Positions 55,919-63,936 of a DNA stretch of 64,000 nt are shown here, piece by piece; the stretch's first letter is position 1, and each line of letters starts with the position of its first letter. The position numbers and the translations under genes are program-made. Source of the stretch: an uncultured Caulobacteraceae bacterium (GTDB lineage: Bacteria > Pseudomonadota > Alphaproteobacteria > Caulobacterales > Caulobacteraceae); contig CAIQJF010000082.1 of NCBI GenBank assembly GCA_903872075.1, positions 1 through 64,000 on the forward strand. Direction: 5' to 3'. The notes beneath the pieces were generated by a model that was not told where the DNA came from, did not search any database, and saw nothing but the letters and a program-made list of their open reading frames with translations.

Positions 55919-56083
55919 GGCCGCTGCTTAGGCCGGTCGCCGCCGTTTCGCAAAGCGTGCGGTGGGCCGCGCGGGTTCAGGCTGCGGGGCGCCGTCATTA
56001 CCCCCTCGCCACCCCCGCCGAAATGCGCTTGAATCGACGGACGAGCCCGGCCGCCAAGACGCCGGGCCGGGAGGACCTGAGAG

Positions 56084-57316
56084 ATGAAGTTCGGCGTGTT
56101 CTATGAGCATCAGCTGCCCAAGCCCTGGGCCGAGGGCGACGAGGCGCGGCTGTTCCACAACGCCCTCGAGCAGGTGGTGCTGGCCGACCGGCTGGGCTTC
56201 GATCACGCCTGGGAGGTGGAGCATCACTTCCTGGACGAATATTCCCATTCCTCGGCGCCGGAGGTGTTCCTGGCCGCCGCCGCCTCGGTGACGAAAAACA
56301 TCCGCCTGGGCCACGGCATCCGGCAGGTGATCGCCAACTACAACCACCCTGCCCGCAGCGCCGAGTGCATCGCCACCCTGGACATCATGTCCCACGGCCG
56401 GGTAGATTTCGGCATCGGCGAGGGGGCGACGCGGCTGGAGCTGGGCGGCTTCCATATCCCGGCGCGCGAGAAGCGGGCCATGGCCCTGGAGGCGGCCGAG
56501 CAGATCGCCAATATGCTGGCGCTCGATCCCTATCCGGGCTTCGAGGGCAAGAGCTTCTCCATGCCCTGTCGCAATGTGCTGCCCAAGCCGATGCAGAAGC
56601 CGCATCCGCCCATGTGGATGGCCTGCACCAACCGCGACACGATCCGGATCGCCGCCTCGATCGGCGTGGGGGCCCTGGCCTTCTCGTTCATCGATCCGGA
56701 CGAGGCCAAGGCCTGGGCGGACATCTATTACGGGATCATCAAGTCGGACGCCTGCAAGCCCATCGGCCATACTGTGAACGCCAATATCGCCATGGTCTCC
56801 AACTTCTCGATCCACCACGACCGGGCCGAGGCGATCCGGCGCGGCCATGAGGGGTTCGAGTTCTTCGGCTATGCCTTGAACGCCCTGGTGGCCCACGACA
56901 CCGTGCCCGGGCGCACCGATCTGTGGAACGAATACCTGGCCAAGCGGGGCGACCGCACCGAGCAGGTGATCGCCGAAGCCGCCGCCCATGGGGCGCCCTC
57001 CACCGGCATCGGCACGCCCGACGACATGCGCCGGCATCTGACGGCGTTCGAGGAGTCGGGCATCGATCAGGTGATCTTCATGCAGCAGGCCGGCCGCAAC
57101 CGGCACGAGCACATCTGCCAGTCACTGGAGCTGTTCGCCGCCGAGGTGATGCCGGAGTTCAAGGCCCGTGTCGCCGCGCGGGAAGCGCGAAAGGCCGAGG
57201 AGCTGGCGCCCGATATCGCCGCGGCCCTGGCCCGGAAGGACTGGATGAAGCCCCTGGCCGACGACGAGATCCCGGTGGTGCGGGCGTCGGTGGCCAAGGC
57301 GCAGGTGGGGCGGTAG
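56084..57316 (+). CDS. LLM-class flavin-dependent oxidoreductase
   Basis: 410 residues of the luciferase-like TIM barrel. Segments: KFGVFYEHQLPKPWAEGDE, FDHAWEVEHHFLDEYSHSSA, IRLGHGIRQVIANYNHPARS, and HGRVDFGIGEGATRLELGGF. It uses FMNH2 and O2 to hydroxylate or cleave an unknown substrate. The N-terminus is cytosolic. The last 60 residues form a helical tail (AREARKAEELAPDIAA). A ribosome site GGGAGGACCTGAGAG precedes the ATG. Confidence 0.88.
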   Translation: MKFGVFYEHQLPKPWAEGDEARLFHNALEQVVLADRLGFDHAWEVEHHFLDEYSHSSAPEVFLAAAASVTKNIRLGHGIRQVIANYNHPARSAECIATLDIMSHGRVDFGIGEGATRLELGGFHIPAREKRAMALEAAEQIANMLALDPYPGFEGKSFSMPCRNVLPKPMQKPHPPMWMACTNRDTIRIAASIGVGALAFSFIDPDEAKAWADIYYGIIKSDACKPIGHTVNANIAMVSNFSIHHDRAEAIRRGHEGFEFFGYALNALVAHDTVPGRTDLWNEYLAKRGDRTEQVIAEAAAHGAPSTGIGTPDDMRRHLTAFEESGIDQVIFMQQAGRNRHEHICQSLELFAAEVMPEFKARVAAREARKAEELAPDIAAALARKDWMKPLADDEIPVVRASVAKAQVGR

Positions 57317-57368
57317 GGGGGCGGGCAACCGTCTTCTGGGACACCCCAGTAAATCAATTCTGTTTCAG

Positions 57369-59168
57369 TCAGCGGATGAGAATGGGGTCCGAATAGCTCG
57401 AGAAAAACGAGTCGTTCGGCGCAATTGCCTTAACCCAAAACCTATATTTCACGTTTCTCTTTAGCCCTACCAGGTAATGTGTGGTTTTCGGGGTTCCAGC
57501 ATCTTGGTCTTCTCCGCCATCGGGACTCGATATAACCGTGTAACCCGTCACGAAATCCAACGATGACCGCGAAAATGCGACGTTCACCTCGCCTGATTGG
57601 CCGTGTATGATGGAGGCCGTTGGGATGCCGGGTTTATTCGAATCTGCGTTGAGAGAGTAGAAGCGGTATCTTAAATCCGCGTCTGGGCCAGTTGTCGTGA
57701 TGATGCTGGCGCAGTCAGTACCGACCGTCGGGCCACGACTTGGAGTCGCTGCTAATACTTCATAAAGAGAAACTTCGGAATCGAACTGATTTAAGCCCTG
57801 TTTATACAAAGCATCCAACAAAGAGTTGCAAAACAACAGATTTTCATTCTTTTGATTTTTGCTATTCGATATATACGTTGTATACCACGGTTGAGAAAAA
57901 ACCCAATCTTGTATCACAAACTGAGACGATAGTTTGGACTGCAAAACGATTTCTCTATAGGCATTAATCTGAGAAATAATGCCGTTTCGAATCGCCTGTA
58001 CTCTATTACTAATTAAGACATTCGTGTAGAGGTTTGGACCATTAGAACCTTCATTTGTCGAGGGATTGCCCGAGGGGGCTGCTCTGTACTGGAGTATATA
58101 TGGGGACGTATTCAGCGAATCCTTTGTTACGAACTGTCCGGTCGCATTGTCATGGCAAATGTTTGCTGTAGAAAAATAGGACGGTCGAGGGCATGTAAAC
58201 GTGACCAACCATGATGCTAAAATGTAGGCCTGACCTCTCTCGGCTTTGAAATCTCGTGACAACGTGCCATTTTCGGGATTTTCGAGCGCTCCCTTGACGA
58301 TAGTGGCTGGCACCAATCCATCGATTCTCACATATTGATTTTGCGGGTCATAACTTTGAAAAATCTTTCCAGCCGCATAGTCTTCCGAAACGTCTCTCGT
58401 AAGCGCGCCGCCGATAGCCGCATCGATCGCACTCGAAGCGTTGTTTATTTCGGATTTTGACAGCGTCGTGAGCAATGAAGAGGTTGGAGCCGCGATGCTG
58501 ACAGCTGTTTTAACGGCTTGAAAAATAACAGCGGCAGCATCATTTTTCCCATCGTTATTTATATCTTCATGAAAGTGTATTGATAGTCTCGTATTTGGTC
58601 CGATTCGAAAGAAAGAAGAACTAACATCATTGTGACTAATAGACGTAGAAAATACGTCTCCTGTTCCGCGAGCGCTATCGTGATCGATCGCAAACAAAGG
58701 AACCGTTTGCATCAGATCGGGGTATTTAATGCTTATATTTACTACCTCTGCTATATGAATTGTTTTGTGCACAAATAATCGCTCTAACCAATTTCTATGT
58801 TCTTTATCGTAATCTCGCACAATTGGTTTGTTTTGAGAACCATCTCCCGTCGAATATTGATTGTTATTGTTCGCGTATCGACAATTTGTGGGATTGTCGG
58901 CGGGAGAGCAGGAAATTATATCTAATTTAGAGTACATATCAGATAAATCCAGGACCGTATTCCTGGACCACTCGTTGGTGCTGACATCTATAAATCGAAT
59001 GATGGACAACGGATGAGAGGCGCTTGTGGACAAATGAGCAGGCGGAGCACTCGTTGCGCTGGCCGGCTGAGCCCAGGTAGAAACAGACCAAGAAAGGGTT
59101 GGAAGTGCTAGTGTAGCAAACAGCCAACGGAAGCGGCTTCTGCCGCGCTGAACGCTCGACCCGTTCAT
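57369..59168 (-). CDS. Low-GC secreted protein with fibronectin-III end
   Basis: 599 residues from ATG 59168, with a signal peptide (RWLFATLALPTLSWSVSTWA). Codon use and GC (about 40-45% by eye, 37% in one 60-base stretch) are far from those around, indicating recent transfer. Features: an EF-hand-like loop DINNDGKND (after HFHE), about ten scattered cysteines, and a C-terminal fibronectin-III-like domain with LDFVTGYTVISSPDGG and VGLKRNVKYRFWVKAIAP. No catalytic motif known. The start may also be 59180 or 59231. Confidence 0.72.
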   Translation of the reverse strand: MNGSSVQRGRSRFRWLFATLALPTLSWSVSTWAQPASATSAPPAHLSTSASHPLSIIRFIDVSTNEWSRNTVLDLSDMYSKLDIISCSPADNPTNCRYANNNNQYSTGDGSQNKPIVRDYDKEHRNWLERLFVHKTIHIAEVVNISIKYPDLMQTVPLFAIDHDSARGTGDVFSTSISHNDVSSSFFRIGPNTRLSIHFHEDINNDGKNDAAAVIFQAVKTAVSIAAPTSSLLTTLSKSEINNASSAIDAAIGGALTRDVSEDYAAGKIFQSYDPQNQYVRIDGLVPATIVKGALENPENGTLSRDFKAERGQAYILASWLVTFTCPRPSYFSTANICHDNATGQFVTKDSLNTSPYILQYRAAPSGNPSTNEGSNGPNLYTNVLISNRVQAIRNGIISQINAYREIVLQSKLSSQFVIQDWVFSQPWYTTYISNSKNQKNENLLFCNSLLDALYKQGLNQFDSEVSLYEVLAATPSRGPTVGTDCASIITTTGPDADLRYRFYSLNADSNKPGIPTASIIHGQSGEVNVAFSRSSLDFVTGYTVISSPDGGEDQDAGTPKTTHYLVGLKRNVKYRFWVKAIAPNDSFFSSYSDPILIR

Positions 59169-59538
59169 GTGTTGCCCCATGTGAAAAGATATATATCCTC
59201 TCAGGTCAACACATGTACCATTTAGAGTCAATGGACGGTCAGATGGTCGAGCGAAACGGGTCGTCCATGCAGGTCATCGTGAGCAAGTTCCTGCGATTTG
59301 AAAAGGAGAGCCGCTTTCAAGGGTGTGAAATCATTGAATGAAAGAGTCGGGCGGCAGGATTGAAAGATATCCATCATCCCGTTTGGTTGTTCGCGGTCGC
59401 ATGAGTCTCTCTGGCGGGCCTCGTGAAAGGCGTTGGCTCATATCCACCGCCAGATAGTGTCGCGCGCCAGTCAGACGTGATAGATTGAGATAGGCGTCGC
59501 GCGGCCTCGCGCGCGGGCCCAGAGGCAGGAGGGACGCC
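59169..59538. other. Gap between low-GC gene and PEP-CTERM gene
   Basis: About 370 bases with no convincing gene. The left part (59169-59230) is the AT-rich leader of the low-GC gene; the rest is normal GC. Two short minus-strand frames (59331-59646) show no family. A strong AGGAGG site at 59527-59532 belongs to the PEP-CTERM start (TTG 59539). Confidence 0.5.
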
Positions 59539-60427
59539 TTGACCACATCCATCATCGGCCGCCTGGCGGTCGCGGGCCTTGGCGGGCTGGCGGGTATGCT
59601 GCTGGCGGCGGCGCCGGCGGGCGCCTCGCCCTTTCTCTACGGGCATGTTCAGGCTTGGCCGTGGACTCCATCGTGGGGCGTGCGGGGGAAGCTACGGTTG
59701 CGGGCACGTCAACAGCCAGACCATCTCGCCGGCGGTGAACAGCGATCTGGCTCACAGCAGCGATTTCAATACGGCGTTTGGCGGGGCCAACACCTCCACC
59801 GCCTCGGCCGCTGCGGCGTTCGGGGCGCTGGACGCCTATGCCGAGGCCTACGCCACGGACAACAGCCTCTACTATGGGAGCTATGCCGAGACCCGGGGCG
59901 ACGCAGAGGCCTATGACCTGATCGACGGCGCCAACAACGGCGGCGGCGTCGACACCGCGACCTTCACCCTGACCGGCTGGATGACGCCGACCGCTCAAAT
60001 CTTCGGGCCCGGCTCGACCGTGTATTTCCAGTTCATCGCCTATGACCTTACCTCGCGGGCGGTGCTCGACAATGTGATCCGCGAGCTCGACGGAGCGTTT
60101 TCGAGCCCGCTCACGGTCACGACCAGCTTTGTCTCAAATCCGGGCGATACGCTGGGGCTGGATGTCTATCTCGAGGCCGACGCCTATGTGAGCAGCGACA
60201 CCTATGACAGCCTGGGCGACCATCTGCGGGTGGTGTCGGATTTCAAGGACACCCTGACCTACACCATCACCGGGGCCCCCGGCGCGCCGGATGTGATCGG
60301 CCAGAGCGGCCACGATTATACCCCCCACGCGGTCTCCGGCGTGCCCGAGCCGGCCGCCTGGACGATGATGATCGCCGGCCTCGGCGCGGCGCTGCGGCGG
60401 CGGCGGGAGGCGGTTCCGGCCTTCTGA
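59539..60427 (+). pseudogene. PEP-CTERM-like secreted protein, broken by frameshifts
   Basis: A TTG at 59539 after AGGAGGGA starts a clean signal peptide (VAGLGGLAGMLLAAAPAGA) in one frame up to about 59655. A middle segment in a second frame (LAVDSIVGRAGE) leads to about 59685 at a G run, and the rest of the protein continues in a third frame from GGSYGCGHVNSQTISPAV to the sorting signal VPEPAAWTMMIAGLGAALRRR. Two single-base changes, or base-calling faults near CTTGGCC and GGGGGAA, are needed. Total length if repaired is about 295 residues. Confidence 0.75.
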
Positions 60428-60526: not shown

Positions 60527-61297
60527 CTATCGCCCCTTCCACGCCGGCAGGCGTTTCTCGGCGAAGGCGGCGGAGCCTTCGGTGCGGTCCTCGCTGACCG
60601 CCCAGGCGGCGTAGGCGGGGTAGGCGGGCTGGGCCTTGATGGCCGCTTCCACATCGGTCTCGGAGAGGCCGCGCATCACCGTCTCCTTGGAGGCGCGGAT
60701 CGACATGGGCGAGGCGCGCAGGATGTCGGCGCACCAGCGCTGGACCGTGGCCTGAAGGTCGGCGGCGGGGACCACCTCATTGACGAAACCGAGGTTCAGG
60801 CCCTCGGCGGCGGTGACGCGCCGGGAGGTGAGGATCATCCCCATGGCCTGTTTCAGCCCGATCTGCCGGGCCAGGCGATGCAGGCCGCCGCCCAGGGCGA
60901 CCGCGCCCACCAGGGGCTCGGGCAAGCCGAAGCTGGCGGTGTCGGCGGCGAGGATCACATCGCAGGCCAGGGCGATCTCGAAGCCCCCGCCCAGGGCCAG
61001 GCCGTTGACGGCGGCGATCACCGGCTTGGTCAGGTCGAAGCGCTCGATCAGCCCTGCATAGCCGTTCTTCGGGTAGCGGCCGTGGCGGTTGGCGACCTTC
61101 AGATCGCTGCCCGCGCAGAAGGCCCGATCGCCCGCGCCGGTGACCACGGCGATGAACTGATCGGGGTCGGCGGCGAAGTCATCGAAGGCGATCTGCAGCT
61201 CGGCGTGCATCTCCGGATTGATGGCGTTCATCACCGCCGGCCGGTTCAGGGTGATGGTGGTGACGTGGTTTTCAAAGGTGACGTCGATGAAGTCCAT
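60527..61297 (-). CDS. Enoyl-CoA hydratase (crotonase family)
   Basis: 256 residues. Oxyanion hole stretches: DRAFCAGSDLKVANRHG and NGLALGGGFEIALACDVIL. Glu residues in the EPLVGAVALGGG region provide the acid/base. The family hydrates 2-enoyl-CoA or isomerises. Its promoter region is shared with the divergent SOS-box gene, 94 bases apart. A second crotonase is at 45096-45884. Confidence 0.88.
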   Translation of the reverse strand: MDFIDVTFENHVTTITLNRPAVMNAINPEMHAELQIAFDDFAADPDQFIAVVTGAGDRAFCAGSDLKVANRHGRYPKNGYAGLIERFDLTKPVIAAVNGLALGGGFEIALACDVILAADTASFGLPEPLVGAVALGGGLHRLARQIGLKQAMGMILTSRRVTAAEGLNLGFVNEVVPAADLQATVQRWCADILRASPMSIRASKETVMRGLSETDVEAAIKAQPAYPAYAAWAVSEDRTEGSAAFAEKRLPAWKGR

Positions 61298-61316
61298 GGC
61301 GGCGCTTTCTTACAGA

Positions 61317-61348
61317 TTGACAAGTTCTCGGATGTTCATGTTATGTTC
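61317..61348 (+). promoter_or_regulatory. Promoter with consensus alphaproteobacterial SOS (LexA) box
   Basis: TTGACA (61317-61322) and a -10 candidate TTATGT or TATGTT (61341-61347). The direct repeat GTTC-N7-GTTC, GTTCATGTTATGTTC (61334-61348), is the alphaproteobacterial LexA operator and overlaps the -10. A third GTTC at 61324 is one base off spacing. The box reads toward the gene at 61392, so LexA would block it until DNA damage. Confidence 0.8.
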
Positions 61349-61391
61349 ATATCCGTGGCGGCCGCGGCGGCGCCAGCGGAGGATCATCCCC

Positions 61392-61826
61392 ATGTCCGGA
61401 CCCAGCGGCGCCCGACCCGGCGAGCCGACGCCCATGACCATCGCCATCGACGCCGTGCGCCGCCGGATCGGCGTGCTGGGCGTGGATGTGCTGTGGGACG
61501 ATGTGCGCGCCGACATCCGCCATCTGCTGGTGTCGCGGCGGCCAACGCAGGCGGAGCGGATCTGCCTGCTGGAAATCCATGCCGATGTGCTCGACGCCCT
61601 GGAGGCGCAGTGCGAGGACGAGCCCGACGCCCTGACCCGGCTGGGCTATCAGCGGGCGGAGGATGGCCTGCTGTTCGCCTTCGCCGAGGCCCTGGCCGCC
61701 GAGGGCGGGTTCGATCCGGACCTGCTGACCGCGGCGCTGGAGCGGGAATGCCTGGCGGGACGGCTGCGGCGCGACGACTATCTCGCGCAGGCGTCGGCCT
61801 GTCTTGTGAACTATCTGCAGCCGTGA
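61392..61826 (+). CDS. Small hypothetical protein, probably SOS-induced
   Basis: 144 residues, helical, acidic. No known motif. Segments: VRRRIGVLGVDVLWDDVRAD, LLEIHADVLDALEAQC, AFAEALAAEGGFDPDLL and a C-terminal LAQASACLVNYLQP. The ATG at 61392 follows GGAGG at nine bases; a second ATG at 61434 (MTIAIDAV) is also possible. Behind an SOS box, it may help in repair or check division, like SidA-type proteins; only the control is seen, not the function. Confidence 0.65.
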   Translation: MSGPSGARPGEPTPMTIAIDAVRRRIGVLGVDVLWDDVRADIRHLLVSRRPTQAERICLLEIHADVLDALEAQCEDEPDALTRLGYQRAEDGLLFAFAEALAAEGGFDPDLLTAALERECLAGRLRRDDYLAQASACLVNYLQP

Positions 61827-61842
61827 TCCCGCCACGCCGGGG

Positions 61843-62919
61843 TCAGGCCGTTTCGACGGCCGCCTCGCGCCGGCGGACCGGGACCTTCGCCACCGCGATC
61901 AGGGATTCCGCGCAATCGCGGATCGACTCATCGAGGCTGCGGAAGGTGATGCCGGTGCGGGCGCGGATGCGATCGTTGCGCAGCTCGCACTGGGCCCAGA
62001 TGCCGCGGAACTCCGCCTCGCGGGCCTTGATCCGGTCGGGGAAGGGATCGATCGGCGGCGTGGCGGCGTGGTTCAGTTCGGGCAGCAGGCGGTCGATGTC
62101 GGCGCAGATGTCCTCCACCTTCCGCACGTCGGTGGACCAGGCGATGTAGCGCTCGCCGTTCTTCACCTCGCTGCTTTCCAGGAGGCCGATGTGGCAGTCG
62201 GCGTCATCGCGCACATCGACGGTCATCCAGGGGCGATAGACGCCGTTCTGGTGATAGGCGCCGCGCAGCATGCCCTCGATGTGGTGCTGCCAGGGCCCCA
62301 TGTCCTTCTGATGCGCCGACTGGATGGGCCCGACATTGTCGCCGGGGCAGCAGGTCACGGAGTCCCAGAAGCCGCTGGCGGCCGCGGCGTCGGAGAAGGC
62401 CCGTTCGGCCACAAGCTTGCCCATGGAATAGCCCTGACCGCGCTCGGGGGTGCGCTTGGGGTTGGATTCGTCCGGATAGCGGTCCTCATAGAACACCGGC
62501 CGGCGGACCACTTCCTGCAGGTCCATTTCCGAGATCACCGCCGCCACCGAGGAGGTGACCACCACGCGGGTGACGCTGCGCGCGGCGTTCACGCTGGCGA
62601 TGATGTGGTCGCAGGTGCGGCGGACGTAGTCCTGGTCCTCATAGGTGCTGATGTGGGCGATGTGGGCCACGCCGTGGCAGCCGACGAAGATGTCATCGAA
62701 ACAGCCCACCCGGTCGAGGTCGGCCGTGTGGAGGGTCAGGCGGCCGGAGGCGTAGCCGGGCAGGGCCTTGAGGAACCCCACCCGGCTGTCGTCGTCGACA
62801 CTGCGCACGCAGGCGCGCACCCGGTAGCCCCTGTCGAGCAGGTTGCGCACCGTCCAGCCGCCGAGAAATCCGGCCGCGCCGGTGACCGCGACGACGCCGC
62901 GCTTGGGAACTGGGGGCAT
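61843..62919 (-). CDS. Extended SDR NAD-dependent epimerase/dehydratase-like
   Basis: 358 residues. NAD site: VVAVTGAAGFLGGWTVRNLL (GxxGxxG). Active site: YSMGKLVAE with Tyr and Lys, and a Ser in VVTSSVAAV. It is like dihydroflavonol reductases and sugar epimerases. The gene is followed at 48 bases by the SDR gene at 62968, same strand, upstream of it, so both may form one unit. Substrate unknown. Confidence 0.85.
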   Translation of the reverse strand: MPPVPKRGVVAVTGAAGFLGGWTVRNLLDRGYRVRACVRSVDDDSRVGFLKALPGYASGRLTLHTADLDRVGCFDDIFVGCHGVAHIAHISTYEDQDYVRRTCDHIIASVNAARSVTRVVVTSSVAAVISEMDLQEVVRRPVFYEDRYPDESNPKRTPERGQGYSMGKLVAERAFSDAAAASGFWDSVTCCPGDNVGPIQSAHQKDMGPWQHHIEGMLRGAYHQNGVYRPWMTVDVRDDADCHIGLLESSEVKNGERYIAWSTDVRKVEDICADIDRLLPELNHAATPPIDPFPDRIKAREAEFRGIWAQCELRNDRIRARTGITFRSLDESIRDCAESLIAVAKVPVRRREAAVETA

Positions 62920-62967: not shown

Positions 62968-63936
62968 TCAGCCGCCGACGCGCCAGCCGGTCTGGGTGGC
63001 GAGGGTCTGGAAGAACGACGGCTCATAGGCCTGTTCCGGATCCGCCCGGACCATGGTGTCGAGGGCGTGGGCGTCGTCGCCCACCAGGATGCGCCAGCGC
63101 TCGGCCTTGACCCCGTCGAGGATGACGGTGGCCGCCTGGGCCGCGGTCATGGGGGCGTCGTCGTGGAAGCGCCGTTCGGCCGCGGCCATGAACGCCTGGA
63201 TCTGTTCGTCGGTGATGGCGGCCGAATCGGCTCCCATGGCCACCATGCGCGCCCGGGCCGCGGCGATGGCGCCAGGGCCGAGGGTATCGGACTCATCGCC
63301 GGTGAGCACCTTGCGCGAATTGGCGACGATCTCGGTGCCGATGTGGCCGGGCATGACCACAGAGCATTTGATGTGGGGGGCGTTGATCCGCAGGTCGGTG
63401 ATAAGGGCCTCGGTGAAGCCTTTCACGGCGAATTTCGCCGCGGCGTAGGCGGTGTGGGAGGTGTGCGGGCCGAGCGAGGCCCAGAAGCCGTTGACGCTGG
63501 AGGTGTTGACGATGTGGCCCTCGTCGGCGGCCATGAGCATGGGCAGGAAGGCGCGGCAGCCGTTATAGACCCCGCCCCAGCAGATGTTGAAGGTGCGCTC
63601 CCAGCCGTCGCGGTCGCCGTTGACGAAGCCGCCGCCGCCGCCGATCCCGGCGTTGTTGAACAGCAGATGGATGCGGTCGGTGTCCTGATCGCGGGCGACG
63701 GCGTCACGGAAGGCCAGCATCTGGGCCTCGTCGGAGACGTCGGCGACGAAGGTGGTGATCTTCGTGCCCTGCGGCGCGCCCTGCTCGCAGAGCGACTTGG
63801 TCACCGCCATGTTGGCGGCGGAGACGTCGCACATGGCGACATTGCAGCCCTCGGCCACGAGCTGGCGCGCCAGTTCCCGGCCCATGCCGGTGCCGCCGCC
63901 GGTGATGACCGCGAAACGGCCCGTGAATTCCTTCAT
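62968..63936 (-). CDS. Short-chain dehydrogenase/reductase
   Basis: 322 residues, classical SDR. TGGGTGMGRELARQLV (GxxxGxG), NNAGIGGGGGFV, the catalytic Ser in VNTSSVNGFW and YAAAKFAVKGF. The C-terminal extension (about 60 residues with FMAAAERRFHDDAPMTAAQAA) is longer than in most SDRs. It oxidises or reduces an alcohol/ketone. It is the upstream gene of the pair with the extended SDR. The start ATG at 63936 lies after an AGGACGC-type site, near the right edge. Confidence 0.87.
   Translation of the reverse strand: MKEFTGRFAVITGGGTGMGRELARQLVAEGCNVAMCDVSAANMAVTKSLCEQGAPQGTKITTFVADVSDEAQMLAFRDAVARDQDTDRIHLLFNNAGIGGGGGFVNGDRDGWERTFNICWGGVYNGCRAFLPMLMAADEGHIVNTSSVNGFWASLGPHTSHTAYAAAKFAVKGFTEALITDLRINAPHIKCSVVMPGHIGTEIVANSRKVLTGDESDTLGPGAIAAARARMVAMGADSAAITDEQIQAFMAAAERRFHDDAPMTAAQAATVILDGVKAERWRILVGDDAHALDTMVRADPEQAYEPSFFQTLATQTGWRVGG

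What the first reader, a model, noticed from the sequence alone, without database searches (positions are those of the whole stretch)
61334..61826. New candidate SOS gene behind a consensus LexA box
GTTCATGTTATGTTC is an exact GTTC-N7-GTTC site laid over the promoter of a 144-residue protein of unknown function. A DNA-damage-induced small protein may be a repair factor or a division inhibitor.
Basis: partly seen in the sequence, partly recalled or inferred. Interest (0 to 1): 0.7.

Follow-up and report, generated by a model that had tools for sequence, protein, structure and literature searches.

The report
New lineage-restricted SOS-controlled small gene
A small, fast-changing gene of unknown function in a relative of Caulobacter sits behind what looks like a good DNA-damage control switch, so it is probably turned on when DNA is damaged, but what its protein does remains open.

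Summary
GTTCATGTTATGTTC is at 61334-61348 (+), 43 nt before a 144-codon ORF (61392-61826, +). The bare GTTC-N7-GTTC pattern is not significant (2 in the window, 1.28 expected), but its spacer is. With a matrix from ten boxes before SOS-type genes of the same genome it ranks 11th of 103 listed sites; 0.39 sites this good are expected per genome, 11 of the 103 reach it. The genome encodes LexA, with a box. A published C. crescentus box differs at one base.

The ORF has two homologues at the same locus in its genus. An exact box precedes the gene in 2 of 3 genomes, or 3 of 4 with a remote homologue. It is absent within 1 kb upstream of 3 of 3 neighbouring enoyl-CoA hydratase orthologues that lack the gene beside them. 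LexA control is therefore likely.

Function is not shown. The protein is predicted soluble and six-helical, matches no family or fold, and is 31-40% identical where its neighbours are 82-89%. A division inhibitor is disfavoured: a SidA-like 29-codon ORF already lies behind two boxes.

The parts
61317..61322 (+). TTGACA, -35-like hexamer in front of the small gene
   Evidence: Read from the sequence; the strict promoter scan found no complete sigma-70 promoter in 61200-61900
61334..61348 (+). Predicted LexA box GTTCATGTTATGTTC
   Evidence: spacer score rank 11 of 103 listed sites
61324..61327 (+). Additional GTTC half-site, 6 nt before the box; role unknown
   Evidence: Read from the sequence
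61378..61382 (+). GGAGG, Shine-Dalgarno sequence 9 nt before the start codon
   Evidence: Read from the sequence
61392..61826 (+). 144-aa ORF, candidate SOS gene; predicted soluble six-helix protein
   Evidence: homologues in G070 and G110, remote one in G095; AlphaFold2 mean pLDDT 86.4
60527..61297 (-). Divergent enoyl-CoA hydratase family gene (context; could share the box)
   Evidence: PF00378, E 1.4e-62
61843..62919 (-). Convergent NAD-epimerase-like gene (context; named by eye)
62968..63936 (-). SDR-like gene (context; named by eye)

Best explanation
The ORF is a lineage-restricted member of the LexA (SOS) regulon of this Caulobacteraceae genome. LexA bound at 61334-61348 would cover the promoter. 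DNA damage activates RecA, LexA cleaves itself, and the gene is derepressed. Box, position and partial conservation are shown here; binding and induction are inferred from the known pathway. The product is a soluble six-helix protein with no recognised domain and no conserved net charge. It most likely works by binding another protein, as a modulator or inhibitor in the damage response; this last step is inference, at about 0.3.
For: Spacer score rank 11 of 103 listed sites, 0.39 expected per genome against 11 seen. Boxes of score 18.7 or more lie before recA, imuA, uvrA, ssb, MmcB-like and others. LexA present with a box about 50 nt upstream. C. [quoted passage not shown] Exact box before the G070 homologue and the remote G095 homologue; in G095 the box lies between an upstream co-directional gene's stop and the small gene. 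No box within 1 kb upstream of the ECH orthologue where the small gene is missing beside it: 3 of 3, G085, G063, G095.
Against: G110 homologue has no exact box; only 2-mismatch sites in the 214 nt scanned. The motif count alone is not enriched: 36 AT-core N8 control sites against 16 N7. The matrix is trained on the same genome; leave-one-out scores are 15.5-24.4, and lexA's own box scores only 13.9. The G095 homologue is weak: profile E 1.4e-4 for one of 390 genomes, hhalign probability 54, and a search with its own sequence does not find the others. No complete promoter by strict scan. Function untested.
Confidence: 0.78

Rival explanations
1. The box mainly controls the divergent enoyl-CoA hydratase, or both genes equally, and the small gene is a passenger.
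For: Box is 36 nt from the ECH start codon and 43 nt from the small gene's; divergent order also in G070 and G110.
Against: ECH orthologues of G085, G063 and G095 that lack the small gene beside them have no box within 1 kb upstream. In G095 the box precedes the remote homologue where no divergent ECH exists.
Confidence: 0.12
2. The box is a chance match and the gene is not damage-inducible.
For: Bare pattern expected 1.28 times per window; N8 control sites outnumber N7 sites; G110 lacks the box.
Against: Spacer score: 0.39 such sites expected per genome, and one of them would have to fall in this promoter by chance; exact box also in G070 and G095.
Confidence: 0.1
3. The protein is an SOS division inhibitor that works like SidA, DidA or SulA.
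For: Small, SOS-type promoter, fast-evolving, as division inhibitors tend to be (the last point recalled).
Against: A SidA-like 29-codon ORF sits behind two boxes in this genome (named by eye). No membrane-type stretch: highest 19-residue hydropathy mean 1.03. No SulA or other family hit.
Confidence: 0.12
4. The protein is a DNA repair or replication accessory factor.
For: Company of recA, uvrA, imuA, MmcB-like and ssb among genes with high-scoring boxes.
Against: No repair domain, no significant fold match, no conserved basic charge: pI 4.6, 5.8, 9.0 and 5.8 in the four homologues.
Confidence: 0.25

Closest known systems
LexA regulon of Caulobacter crescentus (box GTTCN7GTTC; ccna_01391, ccna_02355)
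   Same: Same family Caulobacteraceae, same box; ccna_01391 and ccna_02355 carry a box one spacer base away (PMC12700426, sections 6, 8 and 23 read).
   Different: No homologue of this protein recognised outside its own genus among 390 genomes of the family, so it is not an obvious orthologue of a known C. crescentus SOS protein; the individual C. crescentus SOS proteins were not compared one by one.
SidA and DidA division inhibitors
   Same: Small proteins made after DNA damage; SidA is SOS-induced (PMC4211646, passages).
   Different: SidA is a 29-aa inner-membrane protein; this one is 144 aa without a membrane-type stretch. A SidA-like ORF is a separate gene of this genome.
HigBA/HigX of C. 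crescentus
   Same: SOS-induced accessory genes, higBA of likely foreign origin (PMC13384398, abstract only).
   Different: No toxin-antitoxin or regulator domain found in this protein.

Membership tests
LexA (SOS) regulon of Caulobacteraceae | LexA encoded in the genome | tested here: met
   TIGR00498 over its cut-off, 174 bits, G000:C44
LexA (SOS) regulon of Caulobacteraceae | GTTCN7GTTC box near the start, with a spacer like those of the genome's SOS genes | tested here: met
   Box 43 nt upstream; rank 11 of 103 listed sites
LexA (SOS) regulon of Caulobacteraceae | Box conserved before orthologues | tested here: inconclusive
   2 of 3 clear family members including the window, 3 of 4 with the remote G095 homologue; G110 has none
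LexA (SOS) regulon of Caulobacteraceae | Induced by damage, RecA-dependent, derepressed without LexA, bound by LexA | not testable with these tools
   Criteria as in PMC12700426
SidA-type division inhibitor | Very short inner-membrane protein | tested here: not met
   144 aa; maximum 19-residue Kyte-Doolittle mean 1.03
SidA-type division inhibitor | Blocks division through FtsW/FtsN | not testable with these tools
   Needs expression and interaction assays
Known protein family of any kind | Match to a Pfam, NCBIfam, PADLOC or PHROGs model | tested here: not met
   0 families at E up to 1

The most novel reading that the evidence does not exclude
An SOS-induced, rapidly diverging protein gene has settled in antisense inside a metabolic operon. 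Its LexA-controlled promoter, with no terminator seen before the convergent genes, both makes a species-specific inhibitor protein and silences the operon by antisense transcription after DNA damage.
Probability: 0.08. Interest if true: 0.6.

Novelty: new member of a known kind. Interest (0 to 1): 0.38.

Why it matters
It would add a protein without any known family to the SOS regulon of the Caulobacter lineage, and it shows how the accessory part of that regulon may turn over: a gene with its own LexA box sits between genes that are contiguous in a relative. What such accessory SOS genes do is largely unknown, and this one can be tested with a reporter and an expression strain.

Tried and rejected
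Family scans of the 144-aa protein gave nothing in Pfam, NCBIfam, PADLOC or PHROGs at E up to 1. A scan of the four aligned members gave only scattered weak Pfam matches, one member each. No relative turned up in plasmids, phages or viral contigs, and no convincing PDB sequence match (best E 0.63). Fold searches had 0 matches at E up to 0.001 in PDB and in BFVD; the TPR-like and CTD-interacting-domain-like top rows were not used.

Weak profile hits other than G095 were treated as chance. Box checks: 0 of 7 loci (L041-L047); 1 of 26 loci (L081, about 1.4 kb from the hit); 0 of 10 loci. Seven weak hits came without a locus and were not checked. L034 was dropped because the hit lies in a longer permease-like ORF, named by eye.

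A crude test of whether N7 and N8 sites lie inside coding frames was uninformative (19 of 36 N8 sites inside, and the window site itself called inside), because wrong frames stay open in this GC-rich DNA. The N8 control went against a simple enrichment argument, so that argument was dropped for spacer score and gene context. None of nine SOS-type proteins matched within about 600 nt of the 36 N8 sites.

The neighbour comparison printed no row for the small protein at E up to 1e-4. One search shows that BLAST's low-complexity filter was the cause: unfiltered, G110 matches at 8e-12 and G070 at 6e-11, G095 at 0.011.

Full report
Observation. GTTCATGTTATGTTC lies at 61334-61348 on the + strand, 43 nt before the ATG (61392) of a 144-codon ORF that ends at 61826, with GGAGG 9 nt before the start. 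A TTGACA stands at 61317-61322, so the box would cover the spacer and probable -10 region; a strict promoter scan finds no complete promoter. A further GTTC lies at 61324-61327. The bare pattern is no evidence by itself: two matches in the window, 1.28 expected.

Is the box better than chance? The genome (4.36 Mb in 100 contigs, 92.9% complete) holds 121 GTTCN7GTTC sites, of which one search printed 100, and 16 with an AT core, all printed. Genes behind high-scoring boxes were identified by reading frames and family scans: recA, ssb, a YifB ATPase, a PA0069 radical SAM protein, an MmcB-like protein, a glyoxalase and dnaE above a family cut-off; imuA and uvrA below theirs (the uvrA frame is cut by the locus end). 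That these belong to SOS regulons is mostly recalled. Before dnaE, two boxes precede a 29-codon ORF with a hydrophobic stretch. I read it as SidA by eye, without a sequence comparison; in C. crescentus SidA is a 29-aa inner-membrane protein (PMC4211646, passages).

A matrix from ten of these boxes ranks the window site 11th of 103 listed sites, above the boxes of recA and ssb. An order-1 Markov model expects 0.39 sites of score 20.9 or more in the genome; 11 of the 103 reach it, four of them outside the training set. The training is partly circular: leave-one-out scores run from 15.5 to 24.4, and 8.1 sites of score 15.5 or more are expected by chance. LexA is encoded, with GTTCTCTGGGTGTTC about 50 nt upstream, which scores only 13.9. 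Two C. crescentus SOS genes carry GTTCttgttatGTTC (PMC12700426), one base from this site.

A control with N8 spacing gave 36 AT-core sites, more than the 16 with N7, so raw counts do not support the motif. The gene context does: none of nine SOS-type proteins matched within about 600 nt of the 36 N8 sites.

Homologues. Of 199 family genomes searched with the single protein, G070 (40% identity) and G110 (31%) matched besides the own genome. In the genus, 4 of 16 genomes matched at E up to 0.01, one of them spurious (L034). A profile of the three gave a remote candidate in G095, the best of eight weak hits (E 1.4e-4 for one of 390 genomes; hhalign E 1.3e-4, probability 54; unfiltered tblastn 0.011). 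A search with the G095 protein does not find the others, so it is counted with reserve. A further profile search of 398 genomes of the order added nothing convincing. The genome-contig scan returned three loci from two Caulobacteraceae assemblies, the same G070 and G110 places.

Boxes before homologues. G070 has GTTCCCTTTTGGTTC between gene and ECH; G095 has GTTCCTTTTTTGTTC, in the opposite orientation, between the stop of an ECH-family gene and the start of the small gene. Boxes of the own genome also occur in both orientations. G110 has none: only sites with two mismatches in the intergenic region. A near-duplicate G110 contig lacks the start of the gene and cannot be scored. So 2 of 3, or 3 of 4 with G095.

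Context. The neighbours are an enoyl-CoA hydratase (divergent) and an NAD-epimerase-like and an SDR-like gene (convergent, named by eye). In G085 the order SDR, epimerase, ECH is contiguous, without the small gene and without any GTTCN7GTTC in 11 kb. In G063 a different ORF is upstream of ECH and no match lies in 10 kb. In G095 the ECH orthologue is on another contig behind a different gene; the nearest match is about 1 kb upstream and scores 14.5. So the box goes with the small gene rather than with ECH, on three negative and two or three positive cases. In G070 the gene lies between SDR and ECH, without the epimerase.

Rate. To the window's proteins, ECH, epimerase and SDR of G070, G110 and G085 are 82-89% identical, leaving out the two end-of-contig epimerase pieces of G110:C460 (87% and 71%); ECH of G063 is 78%. 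The small protein is 31-40% identical in G070 and G110. It changes much faster than its neighbours, or has been replaced there.

Protein. AlphaFold2 with a four-row alignment gives six helices, mean pLDDT 86.4, pTM 0.79. No family, solved structure or fold matches significantly. The isoelectric point runs from 4.6 to 9.0 among homologues, and no 19-residue stretch exceeds a mean hydropathy of 1.3. This speaks against a membrane inhibitor and a charge-driven DNA binder and leaves protein-protein interaction as the likeliest mode; that is inference.

Verdict. Five paper searches (listings) showed no paper on this gene. I read sections 6, 8 and 23 of PMC12700426, passages of PMC4211646 and the abstract of PMC13384398. 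Most subscription literature is not in the library.

Noticed in passing
L052 (G000:C28:37719-40733), about 1501-1696: Two adjacent boxes, GTTCCGCTTTTGTTC and GTTCTGCTTTCGTTC, before a 29-codon SidA-like ORF directly upstream of dnaE.
   Followed up: partly
L057 (G000:C74:9969-12983), 1501-1515: Box GTTCTTGTTATGTTC, identical to the published C. crescentus box, between a Phd/YefM-type antitoxin ORF and a divergent 288-aa ORF without any family match.
   Followed up: partly
L020 (G000:C11:82532-85546), 1501-1515: Second-ranked box GTTCTTTATTTGTTC beside a 96-aa ORF with no Pfam match: another candidate SOS gene.
   Followed up: partly
L010 (G000:C4:44440-47454), 1501-1515: Box GTTCTCTTTTTGTTC, same letters as the imuA box, before an ORF with a SnoaL-like domain.
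   Followed up: partly
window 56001-60000: G+C is 0.565 against 0.65-0.72 in the other 4-kb blocks, over a 620-codon ORF on the - strand (57369-59231): possible foreign DNA.
   Followed up: no
L113 (G110:C460) and L051 (G110:C504): One genome holds two overlapping, slightly different contigs of this locus; the epimerase at the end of C460 is split over two frames. Probably strain mixture or assembly error.
   Followed up: no
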